Assembly (NCBI RefSeq): GCF_016804325.1
Contig: NZ_CP043627.1
Location: forward strand, 3,051,001 to 3,115,000
Reading direction: 5' to 3'
DNA length: 64,000 bases
DNA from: Methylobacterium aquaticum
GTDB lineage: Bacteria; Pseudomonadota; Alphaproteobacteria; Rhizobiales; Beijerinckiaceae
The notes beneath the pieces are model-generated. The model was not told the origin of the DNA. It searched no databases and saw only the letters and a list, made by a program, of their open reading frames with translations. The translations under genes were made by a program, and so were the position numbers. Below are positions 4,481 to 30,602 of the stretch, piece after piece (the first letter of the stretch is position 1; each line of letters starts with the position of its first letter).

Positions 4481-5046
4481 TTACGAGACCGCCTGGACCT
4501 CGCGCACGTCCGGCAGGAAGTGGCGGAAGAGGTTCTGCACGCCCTGGCGCAGGGTGGCGGTGGAGGACGGGCAGCCCGAGCAGGCGCCCTTCATCTCCAG
4601 GTACACCACGCCATCGCGAAAGCCCCGGAAGGTGATGTCGCCGCCGTCGCCCGCCACCGCCGGGCGCACCCGGGTCTCGAGCAGGTCCTTGATGGTGACG
4701 ACCGTGTCGGCGTCGGCCTCGTCGTAGAACTCCTCCGCCGCCTCCTCGGGGCGTGGCCGGCCTCCATGACCGGGGCGCCGGACATGAAGTGCTCCATGAT
4801 GGCGCCGAGCACCGCGGGCTTGACCTGCGGCCAGCCGGGCTCGCCCTCGGCCTTGGTCACCGAGATGAAGTCGTGGCCGAGATAGACGCCGGAGACGCCC
4901 TGGACGCCGAACAGGGCGCGGGCGAGCGGCGAGCGCAAAGCTGCACCCTCGTCCCGGGCCTCGAAGGTGCCCTCGGGCAGGACGACCTTGCCGGGCAGGA
5001 ACTTCAGGGTGGCGGGGTTCGGGGTGGCTTCGGTCTGGATGAACAT
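4481..5046 (-). CDS. NifU-like Fe-S scaffold, Nfu type (one apparent frameshift)
   Basis: The first frame (start 5046) encodes the Nfu N-terminal domain beginning MFIQTEATPNPATLKFLPGK. After residue about 98 the reading continues in another frame as EEFYDEADADTVV and then the NifU C-terminal domain, with the cluster ligands CSGC in KGACSGCPSSTATLRQG, ending at the stop 4481-4483. Adding one base to the four-G run at 4748-4751 joins the two halves into a normal protein of about 188 residues. The family delivers [4Fe-4S] clusters to client enzymes in the cytoplasm. The break is probably a base-calling error (see findings); if real, it would remove the cluster-binding domain. Confidence 0.88.
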
Positions 5047-5175
5047 CGGTGATCCTCGAGACGTTCTCTGCGCCGGTTCAAGGCCGGCCGGGAACGGCGC
5101 AAGGTCCGTCGGGACCCCCGCGCCTGCCCGCAGATGTGGACCCGAACGGGCGAAAGCTCAATGGAGCAGGCGCCG

Positions 5176-5679
5176 TTATCCGGCGAGCGCCGTGATTTCC
5201 GCCTCGCTCAGGGCGCCGGGCACGATCACCACCGGCACCGGGAAGCTGCCGGCGCTCCGCCCGGCGATCGAGGTGACGAGCGGCCCCGGCCCCTCGCCGC
5301 CGGCGGCGGCGCCGAGCACCAGGAAGGCGATGTCCTCATCGGCCTCGATCTGGCGCAGGATCGCCTCGGCGCGCTCGCCGGTCCGCACCACCAGCTCGGG
5401 ATCGACGCCCGCCGCCTGCCGCGCCGCCGCCGCGAGCGCCTCCAGGCGCGCACGCGTCTCGGCCTCGGCCTCGGCCCGCATCGCGTCGCCGACGCCGAGC
5501 CATTCCATCGTCTCGGGCGGCTCGGCCACCGCCAGCATCACCACCCGGGCCCCGAGCCGCGCCGCCCGGCGCACGGCGAAATGCACCGCGCGGTCGCATT
5601 CCGGCGTCTCGTCGACCAGCACCATGAACTTGAGCCGATGCCCGGCCTCGAAGGACCGGCGCCGCTTGATCTTGACCAT
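5176..5679 (-). CDS. Universal stress protein UspA family
   Basis: A 167-residue single-domain Usp protein. It has a basic leader MVKIKRRRSF, then the typical first strand LKFMVLVDETPECDRAVHFA, a helix-rich centre, and near the C-terminus a strand-loop-strand LVLGAAAGGEGPG...PVPVVIVPG. The ATP-binding Usp consensus GxxGxxGx9GS is altered here, the loop reading GAAAGGEGPG, so nucleotide binding is uncertain. The ATG at 5679 is chosen because upstream translation lacks Usp similarity. The gene stands alone, 129 bases from the Nfu gene and divergent from the Sia-type operon across a 487-base gap. Confidence 0.88.
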   Translation of the reverse strand: MVKIKRRRSFEAGHRLKFMVLVDETPECDRAVHFAVRRAARLGARVVMLAVAEPPETMEWLGVGDAMRAEAEAETRARLEALAAAARQAAGVDPELVVRTGERAEAILRQIEADEDIAFLVLGAAAGGEGPGPLVTSIAGRSAGSFPVPVVIVPGALSEAEITALAG

Positions 5680-6166: not shown

Positions 6167-6721
6167 GTGCTCGCATCTGACTTCATGGCGTTCCACGAGG
6201 CGTCCCGGCGCAACGGGATCATCCTGTCGTTCGGCGGCGATCTGTCGGAGAACGTGCTGTTCTCCCTCGGCGAGGTCCTGAAGCTGCGGATGCAGCAGGG
6301 CGCCACCGATGCCGGCGTGTCGAAGCGGGTCTTCTCGATCTTCGTCGAGCAGGCGCAGAACGTCATCCGCTACTCGGCGGACAAGCTGGTGCCGCACGGC
6401 TCGCCCGCGAGCGGCATGGTCAGCTCGGGCCTGATCGTCGTCGGCATCGAGGACGGGCGCTTCTTCGTCGCCTGCGGCAACGAGGTCCCGGGCGAGCACG
6501 TCACGGCGTTGCGCGCCCGGCTCGACCACATCGTCGGCCTGTCGGGCGAGGAACTGAAGAAGTATTATCGCGAGCGGCTGCGCCAGCCCGCCGAGGAGGG
6601 CAGCTTCGGCGGCAGCATCGGGCTGATCGAGATCGCCCGGCGCTCCAGCGCCCCGGTCGAGTACGACTTCCAGGCACGCGGCGACGACCGCTCGTTCTTC
6701 TGCCTCAAGGCCTTCATCTGA
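6167..6721 (+). CDS. siaB: SiaB-like protein kinase of the SiaABCD pathway (DUF6272 type)
   Basis: About 184 residues from a GTG at 6167 preceded by a purine-rich GGGAGAAGAG; an ATG at 6185 is the alternative. It resembles the SiaB family, a GHKL-like ATPase fold that phosphorylates SiaC. The segment SIFVEQAQNVIRYS looks like the N-box, and GSFGGSIGLIEIARR like a degenerate G2 box. In Pseudomonas aeruginosa SiaB opposes the phosphatase SiaA in setting the phosphorylation state of SiaC. It lies first in a four-gene operon, 11 bases before siaC. Assignment rests on these motifs plus the matching set of neighbours. Confidence 0.85.
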   Translation: MLASDFMAFHEASRRNGIILSFGGDLSENVLFSLGEVLKLRMQQGATDAGVSKRVFSIFVEQAQNVIRYSADKLVPHGSPASGMVSSGLIVVGIEDGRFFVACGNEVPGEHVTALRARLDHIVGLSGEELKKYYRERLRQPAEEGSFGGSIGLIEIARRSSAPVEYDFQARGDDRSFFCLKAFI

Positions 6722-6732
6722 GGCGCCCGACG

Positions 6733-7119
6733 ATGGACCGCATCCAGATCCCCGCCACCAGCCGCTCGCCGCTGGTCGATTTCGACTTTGCCGCCGGGCG
6801 CCTGCTCCTGCGCGGCGAATCCTACCCCGAGGACGCCGCTGCCTTCTACGGCCCGCTGCTCCAGGCCCTGCGCGCCTGCCTGGAGGAGGAGGGCGAGCCG
6901 ATCACCTTCGAGGTGGCCCTGTCCTACTTCAACTCGTCGAGCGCCAAGGCGTTGATGAACCTGTTCATGCCGCTCGAGGATGCCGCCGAGGGGGGCCGTG
7001 CGGTGACGATCCGCTGGCTCTACGCGGAAGGAGACGACACCATCGCGGAAGCCGGCGAGGACTTTTCCGCGGATTTCTCCCATGCCCGGTTCGAGATGGT
7101 GCAGGAGACGGCGGCATGA
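6733..7119 (+). CDS. siaC: SiaC-like phosphoprotein (DUF1987)
   Basis: A 128-residue DUF1987 protein. In P. aeruginosa unphosphorylated SiaC binds and activates the diguanylate cyclase SiaD, and phosphorylation at Thr68 blocks this. The family signature around the acceptor is Y-x-N-T-S-S-x-K-x-L; here residues 65-74 read YFNSSSAKAL, so position 68 is Ser67+1 in place of Thr. The opening segment with FDFAAGRLLLRGESYPED is also typical of the family. The ATG at 6733 follows siaB closely, and the stop overlaps the siaD start (ATGA, 7116-7119), which points to coupled translation. Confidence 0.92.
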   Translation: MDRIQIPATSRSPLVDFDFAAGRLLLRGESYPEDAAAFYGPLLQALRACLEEEGEPITFEVALSYFNSSSAKALMNLFMPLEDAAEGGRAVTIRWLYAEGDDTIAEAGEDFSADFSHARFEMVQETAA

Positions 7120-8057
7120 CGACCAGGAGGCTTCCGGAGCCCGTGGCGACGACCGACGGCGAGGCTCCCCCGGAGCCCGAGACGGGACAGCGCGGCAACG
7201 GGGCGAAGCGTCCCGGGGGACCGGCCAACGTCTTCAGCCTGTTCGACAACGAGGAGGCGATCCTCGACCGGACCGAGGTGATGCTGACCCAGCTCGCCGC
7301 GGTGGCGGACGGGGTGAAGGTGCTGGCCGAGGCCTATCGCCGGGGCTACCGCGAGCAGCGCCGGCTGGTGCGCCTGAGCGACCGGATGCAGGCCGACCTC
7401 CAGAAGGCCAACAAGCGCCTCGGCGAGCAGCAGCGCGACCTGCAGAACCTGAACGAGGCCCTGTCGGGCGAGATCGAGACCAGCGCCCGCCTGGAGGCGG
7501 AGCTGCGCCGGCTCGCCGATACCGACCCGCTGACCGGGGCGCTCGCCCGCCGGCGCTTCCTGGAGGTCTGCGCCCGCGACTGGCCGCGCCGTCCCGGGCA
7601 GCGCGCCTGCCTGCTGATGCTCGACCTCGACCGGTTCAAGCTCGTCAACGACAGCCACGGCCACGCCGCCGGCGACGCGGCGCTGATCGCCTTCGTCGTC
7701 GCCTGCCGCTCGGCCCTGCGTTCCCTCGACGCGGTCGGGCGGCTCGGGGGCGAGGAATTCGCGGTCCTGCTGGTCGAGACCGGGCCCGAGGACGCGGCCG
7801 TGATCGCCGAGCGCATCCGGGCCACTGTCGCGGGCAATCCCGTCGCCACCGAGGACGGGCCGATCGGCATCACGGTCAGCATCGGCCTCGCGGCGGCCGG
7901 GCCGGGGGAGAGCTTCCAGTCCGCGATGCGCCGGGCCGACGCGGCGCTCTATGCGGCCAAGCGCGGCGGCCGCAACCGGGTCGAGCGGGCCCCCTCCCCG
8001 GAGGCCGAGCCGGAGACGCATGCTCAGGAGACGGGCGGCTCGGAGACGCGCGGGTGA
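7116..8057 (+). CDS. siaD: SiaD-like diguanylate cyclase (GGDEF)
   Basis: A 313-residue cyclase that makes cyclic di-GMP from GTP. Residues 1-40 are low-complexity, residues about 78-135 form a coiled coil, and the GGDEF domain follows from DTDPLTGALARRRF. The active-site loop is GGEEF at 211-215, and an intact inhibitory I-site RSLD sits at 202-205 with the usual five-residue spacing. No sensor or transmembrane domain is present, which fits a soluble cyclase activated by SiaC through its coiled-coil stalk. The start overlaps siaC by four bases, and the stop overlaps the GTG start of siaA. Confidence 0.95.
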   Translation: MTTRRLPEPVATTDGEAPPEPETGQRGNGAKRPGGPANVFSLFDNEEAILDRTEVMLTQLAAVADGVKVLAEAYRRGYREQRRLVRLSDRMQADLQKANKRLGEQQRDLQNLNEALSGEIETSARLEAELRRLADTDPLTGALARRRFLEVCARDWPRRPGQRACLLMLDLDRFKLVNDSHGHAAGDAALIAFVVACRSALRSLDAVGRLGGEEFAVLLVETGPEDAAVIAERIRATVAGNPVATEDGPIGITVSIGLAAAGPGESFQSAMRRADAALYAAKRGGRNRVERAPSPEAEPETHAQETGGSETRG

Positions 8058-9717
8058 GCGGCGAGCCTCTGGCGGAGGGCGCCTCCCGCCGCGGCGGCTC
8101 CCTGCGGGGGGCCGGCCCGATGCGCCGGGGCGATGCGCCGGCCGATCTCGGTGCCACCGGGGTGCCGACGACCCGGGATGGCGGCGCCGACACGATGCGC
8201 CCGGGGGCGTTGCGCGGCGCGGCGCGGGGCCGCAACCTCGACGGCCTCGCCCATACCCTGTTCCTGCGCCTCTCGCCGGTGATCGCCGCCCTGGTGCTGG
8301 CGACCCAGGTGGTGATCGCCTGGGTCAATTACGGCGACCAGATCCGGATCGAGGGCGAGCGCGCCCGGACCATGGCGGACATGACCGCCCGGGCTCTCGC
8401 CCATCCGGGCTGGACCACGGCCTACGGCCCCGCGCTCCAGGCCCTCGGCCTCGATCCCGCCTTCCGCTCCGCGATCCTGCGCGATGCGTCGGGAGGCGTG
8501 GTGGCCCGGCTCGGCGAGGAGCCGCGGGGGCGCAGCTTCGAGCGCATCCAGGTCTCGGCCGAGATCGAGCCCGGCCCCGACGCCCAGCCCGCCGGCAGCC
8601 TGACCCTGGTCCTGTCGGCGGAGGGCCTGCGGGCCAATGCCGAGAAGCAGGTCGTGATGGTGCTCGGCGCCAGCCTGGTGCTGATCCTGGCCTTCGCGCT
8701 GTCCTTGAGGCTGGCGGTGGGGCGTCACGTGCTCGTCCCCTTGCGCCGGCTGCTCTCGGCGATGGGGCGGGTCGAGCGCAAGGAGTGGGTCACGGTCGAC
8801 CTCGCCGGCAGCCGGCGGCCGAGCCGCGAGATCGCCGACATCTCCGCCGCCTTCAACCGCATGGTCGAGGGGCTGAGGAGCGGCGACGAGGCGCGCCACC
8901 TCCTGGCCGAGCTGGAGCGTGCGCATGGGCGGCTCGCCGAGGCCAACGGGCTGGTGATGGAGAGCCTGAACTATGCCCGCCGTATCCAGCAGGCGGTGCT
9001 GCCGGGCCGGGCGCCTTGCGCGGCACCGGGCTCGAGGTCGCGGTGCTGTGGGAGCCGCTGCACGTCGTCGGCGGCGACTATTACTGGATGGAGGAGATCG
9101 ACGGCCTCGGCCTCGTGGTGGTGGCCGATTGCACCGGCCACGGCGTGCCCGGCGCCTTCCTGACCCTGATCGTCGCGACCGCCCTCGACCGGATCCTGCA
9201 CGATCAGGGCTTGCGCCGGCCCGACGAGATCCTGGCCGCCCTCGACGGCGTGGTGCGGGCGCGGCTGCGGCAGGAGGCGGGATCGCCGGACGGGTCCGAT
9301 GACGGGCTCGATTGCGGGATCTGCGTCGTCGACCGGGCGAGCGGCACCCTGGACTTCGCCGGTGCGGGCCTCGCCCTGACGATGCTGGCGGACGGCGAGA
9401 TCACCCGGATCAAGGGGCGGCGCCACGGGCTGGGCTACCGGCGCACCGGCCGGGAGGAGCCCTTCGCGCGGGTCGGCCTGCCGCTGCGCGACGGCCAAGC
9501 CTTCTTCCTGATGACGGACGGGATCAGCGACCAGATGGGGGGTGCGTCCCGCCGGCTCCTCGGCCATCGCGGCATCGCCGAGATCCTGCGCCGGCACGGC
9601 GGCCTGCCCCTCGCCGACCAGGTGGCGGCCCTGGAGGCGGCGCTCGCCGCCCATCGCGGGCCCGAGCCGCGGCGGGACGACATGGCCCTGGTGGCGTTCC
9701 GGCCGATCGCCGGATGA
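8054..9717 (+). CDS. siaA: SiaA-like membrane PP2C/SpoIIE phosphatase (one apparent frameshift)
   Basis: The first frame runs from GTG at 8054, overlapping the siaD stop. It has a transmembrane helix (FLRLSPVIAALVLATQVVIA), a periplasmic region, a second helix (VVMVLGASLVLILAFALSL), a HAMP-like linker and the stretch NYARRIQQAVLPG. The reading then jumps frame near 9000-9015 into the PP2C/SpoIIE domain, with HVVGGDYYWMEE, DCTGHGVPGAF and MTDGISDQMGG supplying the metal-binding aspartates and glycine loops. One missing G or C in GCCGGGCCGGGCGCC restores one protein of about 554 residues. SiaA dephosphorylates SiaC and so promotes c-di-GMP synthesis. The frameshift is more likely a sequence error than a pseudogene. 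Confidence 0.88.
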
Positions 9718-27869: not shown

Positions 27870-27953
27870 CGGCGCCGTAGCGCCCGGCCCGGCGGGCCGC
27901 TACGCTGATCCCACGGGGCCCGGCAAGAGGCTCCGGTTCGGGAGAGACACACC

Positions 27954-29314
27954 ATGCGCATGAGCGAGGGAGGGCGCGGTCGCGCTTCCCGCCGGTTCCT
28001 GCTGGGCTGCCTCGGGGTTGCCGCCGCCGCATTCGCCACCCCGGCCCTGGCCGATCAGGCCTTGAGGCCCCGCGGCGGTGAGGCCCTGGCGCCGGCCCGG
28101 CCGGAGGAGGTCGGGCTGTCGCCTGAGCGGCTCGGCCGCATCAAGCGGGTCATGGAGGAGGAAGTGGCGGCCGGCCGCCTGCCCGGCGCCGTGGTGATGA
28201 TCGCCCGGCGCGGCCGCCTCGCCTATGCCGAGAGCGTCGGCTTTCGCGACAAGGCCGCCGGGGCGCCGCTGGCCAAGGACGCGATCTTCCGCATCTACTC
28301 GATGACGAAGCCGCTGACCTCGGTCGCCGCCATGACGCTGATGGAGGACGGCCGGCTCCAGCTCACCGACCCGGTCTCGAAATACCTGCCCGAGTTCAAG
28401 GACCTGAAGGTCGCGGGCACCCGCCCCAACGCGCTCGGCGAGGCCGCGCCCGATCTGGTGCCGGCGGAACGCGCACCCACGATCCAGGATCTCCTGCGCC
28501 ACACCGCCGGCCTCGCCTATGGCGAGATCACCACCAACCCGGCGGTGAAGGCGGCCTATGCCAAGGCCGGCCTGTTCAAGCCCGATTTCGACTACAACAC
28601 CACCGACCTCACCCCGGAAGAATTCACGGCCCGGATCGCCGGCGCGCCGCTCGCCTACCAGCCCGGCACGGTCTGGCAATACAGCCTCGCCGTCGACGTG
28701 CTCGGCCGCGTGGTCGAGAAGGCCTCGGGCCAGCGCCTCGGCGACTATCTCGCCGACCGGGTGCTGCGGCCCTTGAAGATGAGCGAGACCGGCTTCTCGG
28801 TGCCGGCCGACAAGGCCGGGCGGATCGCCCAGGCGCTGCCGACCGATCCCGCCACCGGCGCGCCGAACCGGCTCATCGACGGCGCGGTGCCGAAGAACGA
28901 TTCCGGCGGGGCCGGCGGCTACGGCACGGCGGCCGATTACCTGCGCTTCGCGCAAGCCATGCTCGACGGCGGCAGCCTCGACGGCGCCCGGGTGCTCAGC
29001 CGCACCAGCGTCGAGTTGATGACCGCCGACCATCTCGGCGACCGGATCAAGCCGGTGGTCGGTCCCGGCGAGTTGCTGATGGGCGTGCCCGGCTACACCT
29101 TCGGCCTCGGCTTCATGGTGCGCAAGGATGCCGGCATCGCCGGCGTGCCGGGCTCCAAGGGCGAGTTTATGTGGGCGGGCTATGCCGGCACGTTCTTCTG
29201 GGTCGATCCCAAGGAGGATCTGGCGGTGGTGATGATGACCCAGGCCCCGGACCGAGCCGGGCCTTCTACCGGCGCGAGATCAAGCAGCTCGTCTACGGCG
29301 CCATCGCCGATTGA
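27954..29314 (+). CDS. Serine hydrolase of the beta-lactamase/class C family (one apparent frameshift)
   Basis: A signal peptide with twin arginines (SRRFLLGCLGVAAAAFATP) precedes a penicillin-binding-like hydrolase with the SxxK motif YSMTKP, the Tyr motif YSLAVD and a late GYAGT segment. Near 29247-29251 the frame must change for the family C-terminus SRAFYRREIKQLVYGAIAD to be read, ending at the TGA 29312-29314. One added G does this and gives about 453 residues. Without the repair the frame runs on into the M20 gene and makes a false fusion. Members are often annotated as esterases or beta-lactamases; the substrate is unknown. Periplasmic location is inferred from the signal. Confidence 0.87.
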
Positions 29315-29432
29315 ACCGTTCGGGGGCGCGGAAAGCCATGCATTCGCGCCCCTGGACTCGCGAGTGACGACACCGGAGGATGCGCGCCGTCCGGCCCGCC
29401 TCCCGGGTCGCAATCCGGAGCGTCTTCGCCGC

Positions 29433-30602
29433 ATGTCCCCGATCGACCGCATCGCCGCCGACCTCGACGCGCTCACCGCCATCCGGCGCGATTTCCACGC
29501 CCATCCCGAGCTCGGCTTCGAGGAGGTGCGCACCTCCGGCATCGTGGCGGACAAGCTCGCCTCCTGGGGCATCGAGGTGCATCGCGAGATCGGCCGCACC
29601 GGCGTCGTCGGGGTGCTGAAGGGCCGCGGCACCAGCACGCGCCGCATCGGGTTGCGCGCCGACATGGACGCCCTGCCGATCGAAGAGGCGACCAACCTTC
29701 CCTATCGCTCGACGGTGCCGGGCAAGATGCACGCCTGCGGGCATGACGGCCACACCACGATGCTGCTCGGTGCCGCCAAGTACCTCGCCGAGACCCGCGA
29801 CTTCGACGGCACCGCGGTGTTCATCTTCCAGCCCGCCGAAGAGGGCCTGGGCGGCGCCCGCGCCATGCTGGCCGACGGGCTGTTCTCGCGCTTCCCCTGC
29901 GACGAGGTCTACGGCCTGCACAACAACCCGAGCGGGCGGAGCGGCGAGCTCTCGGTGCGGCCGGGCCCGGCCATGGCGGCGGCGGACTTCTTCGACATCC
30001 GCATCGTCGGCCGCGGCGCCCACGGGGCGCAGCCCAATCGCGGCATCGACCCGGTGGTGGTCCAGGCCGCCCTGGTCCAGGCGCTCCAGACCATCGTCAG
30101 CCGCAACGCCGACCCGCTGCAATCGGCGGTCCTGTCGATCACCCAGGTCCATGCCGGGGCGGCCTACAACGTGATCCCGGAGGAGGCCCACCTCGCCGGC
30201 ACGGTCCGCACCTTCGACGACGACATCCGGGCCCTCGTCGCCAGGCGCATGCGCGAGATCTGCGCCGGCGTGGCGGCGACCTTCGGCGCCGAGATCACGG
30301 TCGAGATCCGCGACATCTTCTCGGTCCTGCGCAACAGCGAGGACCAGACCCGCGCCGCCGCCGAGATCGCCACCGAGTTGTTCGGCGCCGCCAAGGTCGA
30401 CACCGCACCGGAGCCCAAGATGGGCAGCGAGGATTTTGCCGACATGCTGCACGCCGTGCCCGGCGCCTATGCCTGGCTCGGGGGCAAGGCCGGGGCGAAC
30501 CTGCACAACGCGGCCTACGACTTCGACGACGCGATCATCCCCCTCGGCGCGGCCTATCTGGCGCGGCTGGTCGAGCGGCGCTCGGCGGCGGCCGCCGCTT
30601 GA
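29433..30602 (+). CDS. M20 family amidohydrolase (hippurate hydrolase type)
   Basis: A 389-residue zinc aminoacylase-like enzyme. Segments are RRDFHAHPELGFEEVRTSG, LRADMDALPIEE (metal Asp), KMHACGHDGHTTMLLGAA (metal His), QPAEEGLGGARAML (catalytic Glu pair), YGLHNNP, and KMGSEDFADML with ANLHNAAYDFDD near the end. A dimerisation domain lies in the middle. This is the pattern of N-acyl-amino-acid or hippurate hydrolases. ATG 29433 is chosen because it precedes the conserved N-terminus; upstream in-frame residues result only from the frameshift in the preceding gene. It is probably co-transcribed with the serine hydrolase. Confidence 0.93.
   Translation: MSPIDRIAADLDALTAIRRDFHAHPELGFEEVRTSGIVADKLASWGIEVHREIGRTGVVGVLKGRGTSTRRIGLRADMDALPIEEATNLPYRSTVPGKMHACGHDGHTTMLLGAAKYLAETRDFDGTAVFIFQPAEEGLGGARAMLADGLFSRFPCDEVYGLHNNPSGRSGELSVRPGPAMAAADFFDIRIVGRGAHGAQPNRGIDPVVVQAALVQALQTIVSRNADPLQSAVLSITQVHAGAAYNVIPEEAHLAGTVRTFDDDIRALVARRMREICAGVAATFGAEITVEIRDIFSVLRNSEDQTRAAAEIATELFGAAKVDTAPEPKMGSEDFADMLHAVPGAYAWLGGKAGANLHNAAYDFDDAIIPLGAAYLARLVERRSAAAAA

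What the first reader, a model, noticed from the sequence alone, without database searches (positions are those of the whole stretch)
6167..9717. SiaB-SiaC-SiaD-SiaA phospho-switch operon controlling c-di-GMP outside Pseudomonas
A GHKL-like kinase, a DUF1987 phosphoprotein, a sensorless diguanylate cyclase with I-site and a membrane PP2C phosphatase occur in one coupled operon (ATGA and GTGA overlaps) in the order B-C-D-A. This is the full known Sia set, in a different order from P. aeruginosa siaABCD. It lies about 1.4 kb from an extensive polysaccharide region, which suggests that the module sets polysaccharide output or surface life in this organism.
Basis: partly seen in the sequence, partly recalled or inferred. 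Interest (0 to 1): 0.7.

Follow-up and report, generated by a model that had tools for sequence, protein, structure and literature searches.

The report
Sia phospho-switch controlling c-di-GMP in Methylobacterium
A Methylobacterium genome carries the four-gene switch that Pseudomonas aeruginosa uses to turn c-di-GMP production on and off, in a common alternative gene order, with one docking site instead of two, and with its phosphatase gene broken by one base in this assembly, probably a sequencing error.

Summary
The four genes are present in the order B-C-D-A. Each matches its Pseudomonas aeruginosa counterpart by family and by solved-structure sequence. One correction: siaA is not one open reading frame. 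Its membrane half and PP2C half lie in different frames, separated by a one-base deletion near 9003-9013. All 47 same-genus relatives that show both halves have them in one ORF. Other one-base deletions nearby and unrelaxed selection favour an assembly error over a dead gene. B-C-D-A is not unusual: 48 of 50 Methylobacterium loci (the other two end at a contig edge) and 50 of 80 named loci from several genera. The polysaccharide link is not supported: 34 of 49 relatives carry the operon elsewhere. Differences from P. aeruginosa: serine for Thr68 of SiaC; one SiaC-docking motif on SiaD instead of two; a small periplasmic sensor in SiaA. Most interesting: the docking motif nearest the catalytic domain lies exactly 21, 28, 35 or 49 residues before it in 225 of 225 SiaD-position cyclases with a motif (21 non-redundant clusters), always whole heptads, which suggests that SiaC acts through coiled-coil register.

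The parts
6167..6721 (+). siaB, SiaB-family protein kinase (DUF6272), 184 aa, GTG start
   Evidence: PF19788 133.9 bits; NCBIfam SiaB_fam_kinase 188.8 bits over cut-off 85; phmmer to PDB 6kko_A E 4.3e-21
6733..7119 (+). siaC, regulatory phosphoprotein, 128 aa
   Evidence: PF09345 137.4 bits; PDB 6kko_C E 2.8e-22; only SiaC match in this genome
6934..6936 (+). codon of Ser68 of SiaC (motif YFNSSSAK), at the place of phospho-Thr68 of P. aeruginosa (YLNTSSIK)
   Evidence: alignment; Ser in 50 of 50 genus loci
7116..8057 (+). siaD, diguanylate cyclase without sensor domain, 313 aa
   Evidence: GGDEF 125.4 bits; PDB 7e6g_A E 2.1e-31; predicted as one helix 42-135 plus GGDEF domain, mean pLDDT 87
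7377..7391 (+). single SiaC-docking motif SDRMQ (residues 88-92 of SiaD), 49 residues before Asp137 of DPLTG
   Evidence: S88 D89 R90 M91 Q92 invariant in an alignment of the window's SiaD with 49 of the 92 proteins
7719..7730 (+). I-site RSLD (residues 202-205 of SiaD)
   Evidence: translation; R202 and D205 nearly invariant
7746..7760 (+). GGEEF active-site motif (residues 211-215 of SiaD)
   Evidence: translation; invariant
8054..9006 (+). siaA, membrane half: disordered N-terminus, TM, small periplasmic domain, TM, HAMP
   Evidence: HAMP; two hydrophobic stretches; model
9003..9013 (+). place of the one-base deletion that breaks the siaA frame (G/C-rich; exact base ambiguous)
   Evidence: all 47 relatives with both halves have them in one ORF
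9016..9717 (+). siaA, PP2C/SpoIIE phosphatase half, in another frame
   Evidence: SpoIIE 83.9 bits; PDB 6k4e_A E 1.5e-42
5176..5679 (-). universal stress protein gene, divergent upstream neighbour (context, not part of the module)
   Evidence: Usp 67.4 bits
10302..10706 (+). rplS (ribosomal protein L19), between the operon and the polysaccharide genes (context)
   Evidence: Ribosomal_L19 169.8 bits
11126..11932 (-). WecG/TagA-type glycosyltransferase, nearest polysaccharide gene (context)
   Evidence: PF03808 94.4 bits

Best explanation
This is a Sia-type partner switch for c-di-GMP. SiaB phosphorylates SiaC on Ser68. Phospho-SiaC cannot dock on SiaD. The membrane phosphatase SiaA, through a small periplasmic PAS/Cache-like sensor and a HAMP domain, removes the phosphate. 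Free SiaC then docks at one SDRMQ site on each helix of the SiaD dimer stalk, seven heptads before the GGDEF domain, and stabilises the active dimer; c-di-GMP at the I-site feeds back. The expected complex is two SiaC on two SiaD, not the four on two of P. aeruginosa. The break in siaA is most likely an assembly error, so the living strain probably has a working SiaA. Shown here: the genes, family membership, motifs, order and the break. Inferred from homology: the kinase, phosphatase and docking steps and their direction. Unknown: the signal and the c-di-GMP output.
For: All four proteins match the solved P. aeruginosa Sia proteins by sequence. Motifs of the mechanism are kept: the SiaC docking surface YxNSSxxK with Ser in place of Thr68, the SiaD stalk motif SDRMQ, GGEEF and I-site, the DG and DD motifs of PP2C. 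SiaD is predicted as one unbroken helix from 42 to 135 into the GGDEF domain. The four genes stay together as B-C-D-A in 48 of 50 genus loci, the other two ending at contig edges, although nine upstream-flank clusters show that the block sits in different places. dN/dS of siaB, siaC, siaD and both siaA parts is 0.10-0.41 against six relatives. Assembly error: an intact SiaA that matches the window's halves at 97 and 98% identity exists (P0001, source not shown), and one-base deletions also break nfu near 4747 (against four relatives) and a serine hydrolase near 29245 (against three relatives). P. aeruginosa mechanism: PMC8457831 section 8 and passages, PMC7647112 passages, PMC7278518 whole text.
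Against: No experiment in this organism. NCBIfam equivalog cut-offs for the Pseudomonas proteins are not reached (SiaB 100.5 of 225, SiaC 93.5 of 150, SiaD 163.9 of 290 bits). Taken literally the sequence encodes no complete SiaA. The genome has about 47 GGDEF domains (51 matches, which I read as 47 domains because four are second fragments), so this cyclase may matter little. Genome-wide support for assembly errors is thin: 2 of about 47 GGDEF domains are frame-split here, against 0 of 36 and 1 of about 40 in two relatives, and the overall rate of frame-breaking gaps against four relatives (0.40-0.59 per kb) overlaps that among the relatives (0.25-0.59 per kb).
Confidence: 0.75

Rival explanations
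1. siaA is truly broken in this strain. The PP2C half is not made, SiaC stays phosphorylated and SiaD stays off, so the module is locked.
For: The one-base deletion is in the sequence; the genome is reported 99.99% complete in five contigs, so the assembly is not obviously poor.
Against: Of 48 genus loci with both halves only the window shows a break. No relaxed selection behind the break: C/N dN/dS ratio 1.09-2.35 in six window pairs against 0.92-2.38 in 15 other pairs, though a very recent break would look the same. One-base deletions also hit nfu, an iron-sulphur scaffold gene by family.
Confidence: 0.18
2. The module is dedicated to the polysaccharide genes about 1.4 kb downstream.
For: Polysaccharide genes are there; the P. 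aeruginosa module raises Psl (PMC12834913 passages).
Against: 15 of 49 relatives share this location, 34 do not. rplS and a hypothetical gene intervene. None of the 8 PilZ matches of the genome lies in the window. In six other contexts sampled I saw no polysaccharide operon, only one AlgX-like gene about 2 kb beyond siaA in one of them.
Confidence: 0.1
3. SiaC here acts mainly on a partner other than SiaD, with SiaD a minor branch.
For: Several B-C or A-B-C loci outside the genus have no GGDEF gene detected next to siaC.
Against: In all 50 genus loci a SiaD with the docking motif follows siaC.
Confidence: 0.07
4. SiaA is made by programmed frameshifting at 9003-9013.
For: The two halves are in overlapping frames and both are conserved.
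Against: All 47 relatives with both halves, and P0001, encode SiaA in one ORF.
Confidence: 0.01

Closest known systems
SiaABCD of Pseudomonas aeruginosa
   Same: Same four protein families, same conserved functional motifs, GGEEF cyclase without a sensor domain and with an I-site
   Different: Order B-C-D-A, not A-B-C-D; Ser for Thr68 in SiaC; one docking motif at -49 instead of two at -21 and -53; SiaA shorter (554 aa in the intact relative P0001 against a 658-position model), with a small periplasmic domain; SiaB, SiaC and SiaD score under the NCBIfam equivalog cut-offs
Sia operons of Enterovirga, Roseomonas-type bacteria, Roseospira and Thioalkalivibrio
   Same: B-C-D-A order; single docking motif at -49 in 16 of 16 B-C-D-A loci outside Methylobacterium; Ser at position 68 in those read (the search used the peptide YFNSSSAK, which favours Ser)
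   Different: SiaA sensor part and D-to-A distance vary; Azospirillum has B-C with siaA inverted; Tistrella has A-B-C-D with spacing 35
Phytochrome-activated diguanylate cyclases (PadC) with heptad-stepped coiled-coil linkers
   Same: Linker length to GGDEF changes in steps of seven, tied to coiled-coil register (PMC9587094 passages)
   Different: There the input is a covalent phytochrome and 54% of linkers fit seven; here the input is a separate docked protein and every measured motif nearest the GGDEF domain fits
RsbT/RsbS/RsbU and HsbR/HsbA/HsbD partner switches (recalled, from no call)
   Same: Kinase and PP2C phosphatase acting on a STAS-like protein that releases or binds a target
   Different: Other kinase type or target; not compared here

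Membership tests
SiaC family (PF09345) | Pfam score over the curated cut-off | tested here: met
   137.4 bits, cut-off 24.5
SiaB family kinase (NF038262) | NCBIfam subfamily score over cut-off | tested here: met
   188.8 bits, cut-off 85
P. aeruginosa-type SiaB, SiaC, SiaD equivalogs (NF038264, NF038265, NF038266) | NCBIfam equivalog score over cut-off | tested here: not met
   100.5 of 225, 93.5 of 150, 163.9 of 290 bits: a homologue, not the Pseudomonas equivalog
P. aeruginosa-type SiaA equivalog (NF038263) | score over 700 bits for the whole protein | tested here: inconclusive
   only the two pieces were searched, 41.8 and 177.6 bits; the break prevents a whole-protein test
Sia module | all four genes A, B, C, D together | tested here: met
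   siaA broken in the assembly
Sia module | phosphorylatable Ser or Thr at position 68 of SiaC in the N-x-S context | tested here: met
   Ser68, YFNSSSAK
Sia module | two SiaC-docking motifs on the SiaD stalk, as in P. aeruginosa | tested here: not met
   one motif, at -49; exactly one pattern match in 50 of 50 genus loci
Sia module | SiaB phosphorylates and SiaA dephosphorylates SiaC; free SiaC activates SiaD | not testable with these tools
   needs purified proteins
Active diguanylate cyclase | GG(D/E)EF and RxxD I-site | tested here: met
   GGEEF and RSLD translation; conserved

The most novel reading that the evidence does not exclude
SiaC controls SiaD through coiled-coil register, not through distance. 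Docking sites may sit 3, 4, 5 or 7 whole heptads from the cyclase domain, one or two per helix, as long as the phase is kept. The two-site, phospho-threonine Pseudomonas complex is then one special case of a wider family in which a single docked pair under phospho-serine control suffices.
Probability: 0.55. Interest if true: 0.5.

Novelty: new variant of a known kind. Interest (0 to 1): 0.35.

Why it matters
In the papers seen here the Sia switch has been worked out only in P. aeruginosa. The survey shows that it is a widespread module with variable gene order, and that Thr68 and two docking sites are not general. The whole-heptad rule turns an open question (how SiaC binding on a distant stalk activates the cyclase) into a simple test: insert or delete 7 residues against 3 or 4. 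The broken siaA frame is a warning for anyone annotating this genome.
Full report
What is there. The window is G000:C1:3051001-3115000 of a 7.28-Mb genome in five contigs. Its closest named relatives are Methylobacterium species. From 6167 the + strand encodes a SiaB-family kinase, a SiaC phosphoprotein, a GGDEF protein without sensor domain, and a HAMP plus PP2C/SpoIIE membrane phosphatase. Each matches the solved P. aeruginosa protein: 6kko for SiaB and SiaC, 7e6g for SiaD, 6k4e for the SiaA phosphatase domain. siaC and siaD overlap by ATGA, and siaD and siaA by GTGA. This genome has one SiaC match.

siaA is not one reading frame. The frame that starts at 8054 holds the membrane half and HAMP; the PP2C half lies in another frame. 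Against the five relatives aligned the window lacks one base in a G/C-rich stretch at about 9003-9013. In the genus, 47 of 49 relatives show both halves and all 47 have them in one open frame; the other two loci end at a contig edge. A 554-aa intact SiaA at 97-98% identity is in the protein collection (P0001). nfu near 4747 and a serine hydrolase near 29245 also show one-base deletions against four and three relatives. Selection is not relaxed behind the break. I read this as assembly error at about four to one. Genome-wide evidence is weak: 2 of about 47 GGDEF domains are frame-split here, 0 of 36 in G095 and 1 of about 40 in G090, and the overall gap rate is not clearly higher than among relatives.

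Order and distribution. A SiaC match is in 50 of 111 genomes of the genus, 15 of 298 of the family, 14 of 397 of the order, 14 of 385 of the class (13 over the cut-off) and 67 of 398 of the phylum (66 over the cut-off); the wider draws include some genomes of the genus. Of 50 genus loci including the window, 48 are B-C-D-A and two are cut after D. Of 40 loci outside the genus fetched are A-B-C-D, 5 A-B-C without D, 5 have siaA inverted, 6 are incomplete or other, and none is B-C-D-A. Ten more loci (L189-L198) gave one B-C-D-A (Enterovirga), one A-B-C-D, six A-B-C, one with siaA inverted and one repeat of L109; twelve short loci did not reach far enough to show the order. A second collection gave 584 pattern matches, of which the best 80 were kept. 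Of these 80, 50 are B-C-D-A: 34 from Methylobacterium or a Beijerinckiaceae MAG, and 16 from Enterovirga, Roseomonas, Pseudoroseomonas, an Acetobacteraceae strain, Roseospira, a Rhodospira MAG, Roseospirillum, Thioalkalivibrio and Allochromatium (in L245, L253, L262 and L271 about 0.8-1.3 kb more lies between D and A). The other 30 are B-C with siaA inverted (17), B-C-D (7), A-B-C-D (2), B-C (2) and two mixed orders. Many named Methylobacterium loci are the same genomes as unnamed ones. On a tree of 44 representatives the place of siaA (first or last, 42 rows labelled) changes at least three times; Methylobacterium, Enterovirga and two Acetobacteraceae form one supported clade (100/99). Order is therefore a recurrent variation, not a discovery.

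Location. 15 of 49 relatives have the operon at the usp-rplS location, 34 do not; upstream flanks form nine clusters. In six other contexts, one locus each, 28 flank ORFs were scanned; those with a Pfam match include an amino acid kinase, ABC transporters, an SbcC-like ATPase, a Na+/H+ exchanger, a periplasmic binding protein, a MOSC protein, a response regulator, and one AlgX-like protein about 2 kb beyond siaA. None of eight PilZ matches is in the window. As far as I can see the polysaccharide link rests on closeness alone.

How it differs from P. aeruginosa. Position 68 of SiaC is Ser in 50 of 50 genus loci and in 52 of 62 others (10 Thr). In the 80 named loci the site reads Ser in 79; in L262 the pattern fell on an unclear place, and the search itself favoured Ser. 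P. aeruginosa SiaD carries two docking motifs on its stalk (PMC8457831 section 8; sequence). Here there is one, SDRMQ, invariant in an alignment with 49 of the 92 proteins, and one per protein in all 50 genus loci. SiaA has two hydrophobic stretches around residues 64-94 and 196-228, and between them a small domain, predicted at moderate confidence, that resembles PAS/Cache-type sensors.

The heptad rule. I measured the distance from the serine of the motif to the Asp of DxLT at the start of the GGDEF domain in 231 cyclases (139 found downstream of siaC, 92 proteins); one had no anchor and five no motif. In the other 225 the motif nearest the cyclase lies at 49 (193), 28 (13), 21 (11) or 35 (8): whole heptads in 225 of 225. 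These are highly redundant; at 60% stalk identity there are 25 clusters, 21 with a motif: 49 in 7, 21 in 6, 28 in 5, 35 in 3. The second, distal P. aeruginosa-type motif lies at 53 (seven proteins), which is not a multiple of seven, and six proteins show a pattern match at 59 that I take for chance. Hydrophobic residues peak at distance 0 and 4 modulo 7 in all four classes, though in the 21 class position 4 (0.40) barely exceeds position 2 (0.37). The distance from an N-terminal FSLF motif to the docking serine is 48 in all 129 proteins where that motif was found (these have spacing 49, 35 or 28). So, in those, upstream length is fixed and only the part between docking site and enzyme varies, in whole heptads. 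The tree needs at least four changes of spacing; four changes that all fit seven by chance would have odds of about 1 in 2400, a figure given after the fact. The SiaD model is one helix from 42 to 135. The held main text of the SiaD-SiaC structure paper does not contain the words heptad or register. A search for SiaD with heptad gave 37 papers, and none of the 20 listed is on this protein by title. A similar rule is published for phytochrome cyclases (PMC9587094 passages).

Mechanism and limits. The phospho-switch itself is taken from P. aeruginosa work (PMC7278518 read whole; section 8 of PMC8457831; passages of PMC7647112, PMC8457831 and PMC12834913). Nothing in Methylobacterium was tested. 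Searches for print on this module in Methylobacterium found none (no paper with DUF1987 and Methylobacterium; no paper with the family name; none of 11 papers with the Sia terms holds Methylobacterium), in an open-access library only.

Noticed in passing
window 4484-5062 (- strand), break near 4747: nfu (iron-sulphur scaffold) is cut by a one-base deletion in a C run relative to four relatives; its listed ORF ends in a wrong-frame tail.
   Followed up: partly
window 27936-30602 (+), break near 29245: A serine hydrolase (Beta-lactamase Pfam family) reads on in frame into a downstream M20 peptidase; the one relative read in full (G015) has two genes and three relatives show the base, so the fusion is an artefact of a one-base deletion or a recent event.
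   Followed up: partly
L191-L194, L196, L197 (one genus of the same order): A-B-C loci without a GGDEF gene detected behind siaC; SiaC there may have another target.
   Followed up: no
L240, L243, L256, L274, L278 (Magnetospirillum-type): The GGDEF gene more than 2 kb downstream of siaC is a PAS-GGDEF type without docking motif and may not be a SiaD.
   Followed up: no
P0149 (MAG labelled Sphingomonas): A SiaD close to the Methylobacterium type with spacing 35 instead of 49, two heptads shorter: a natural test case of the register idea.
   Followed up: partly
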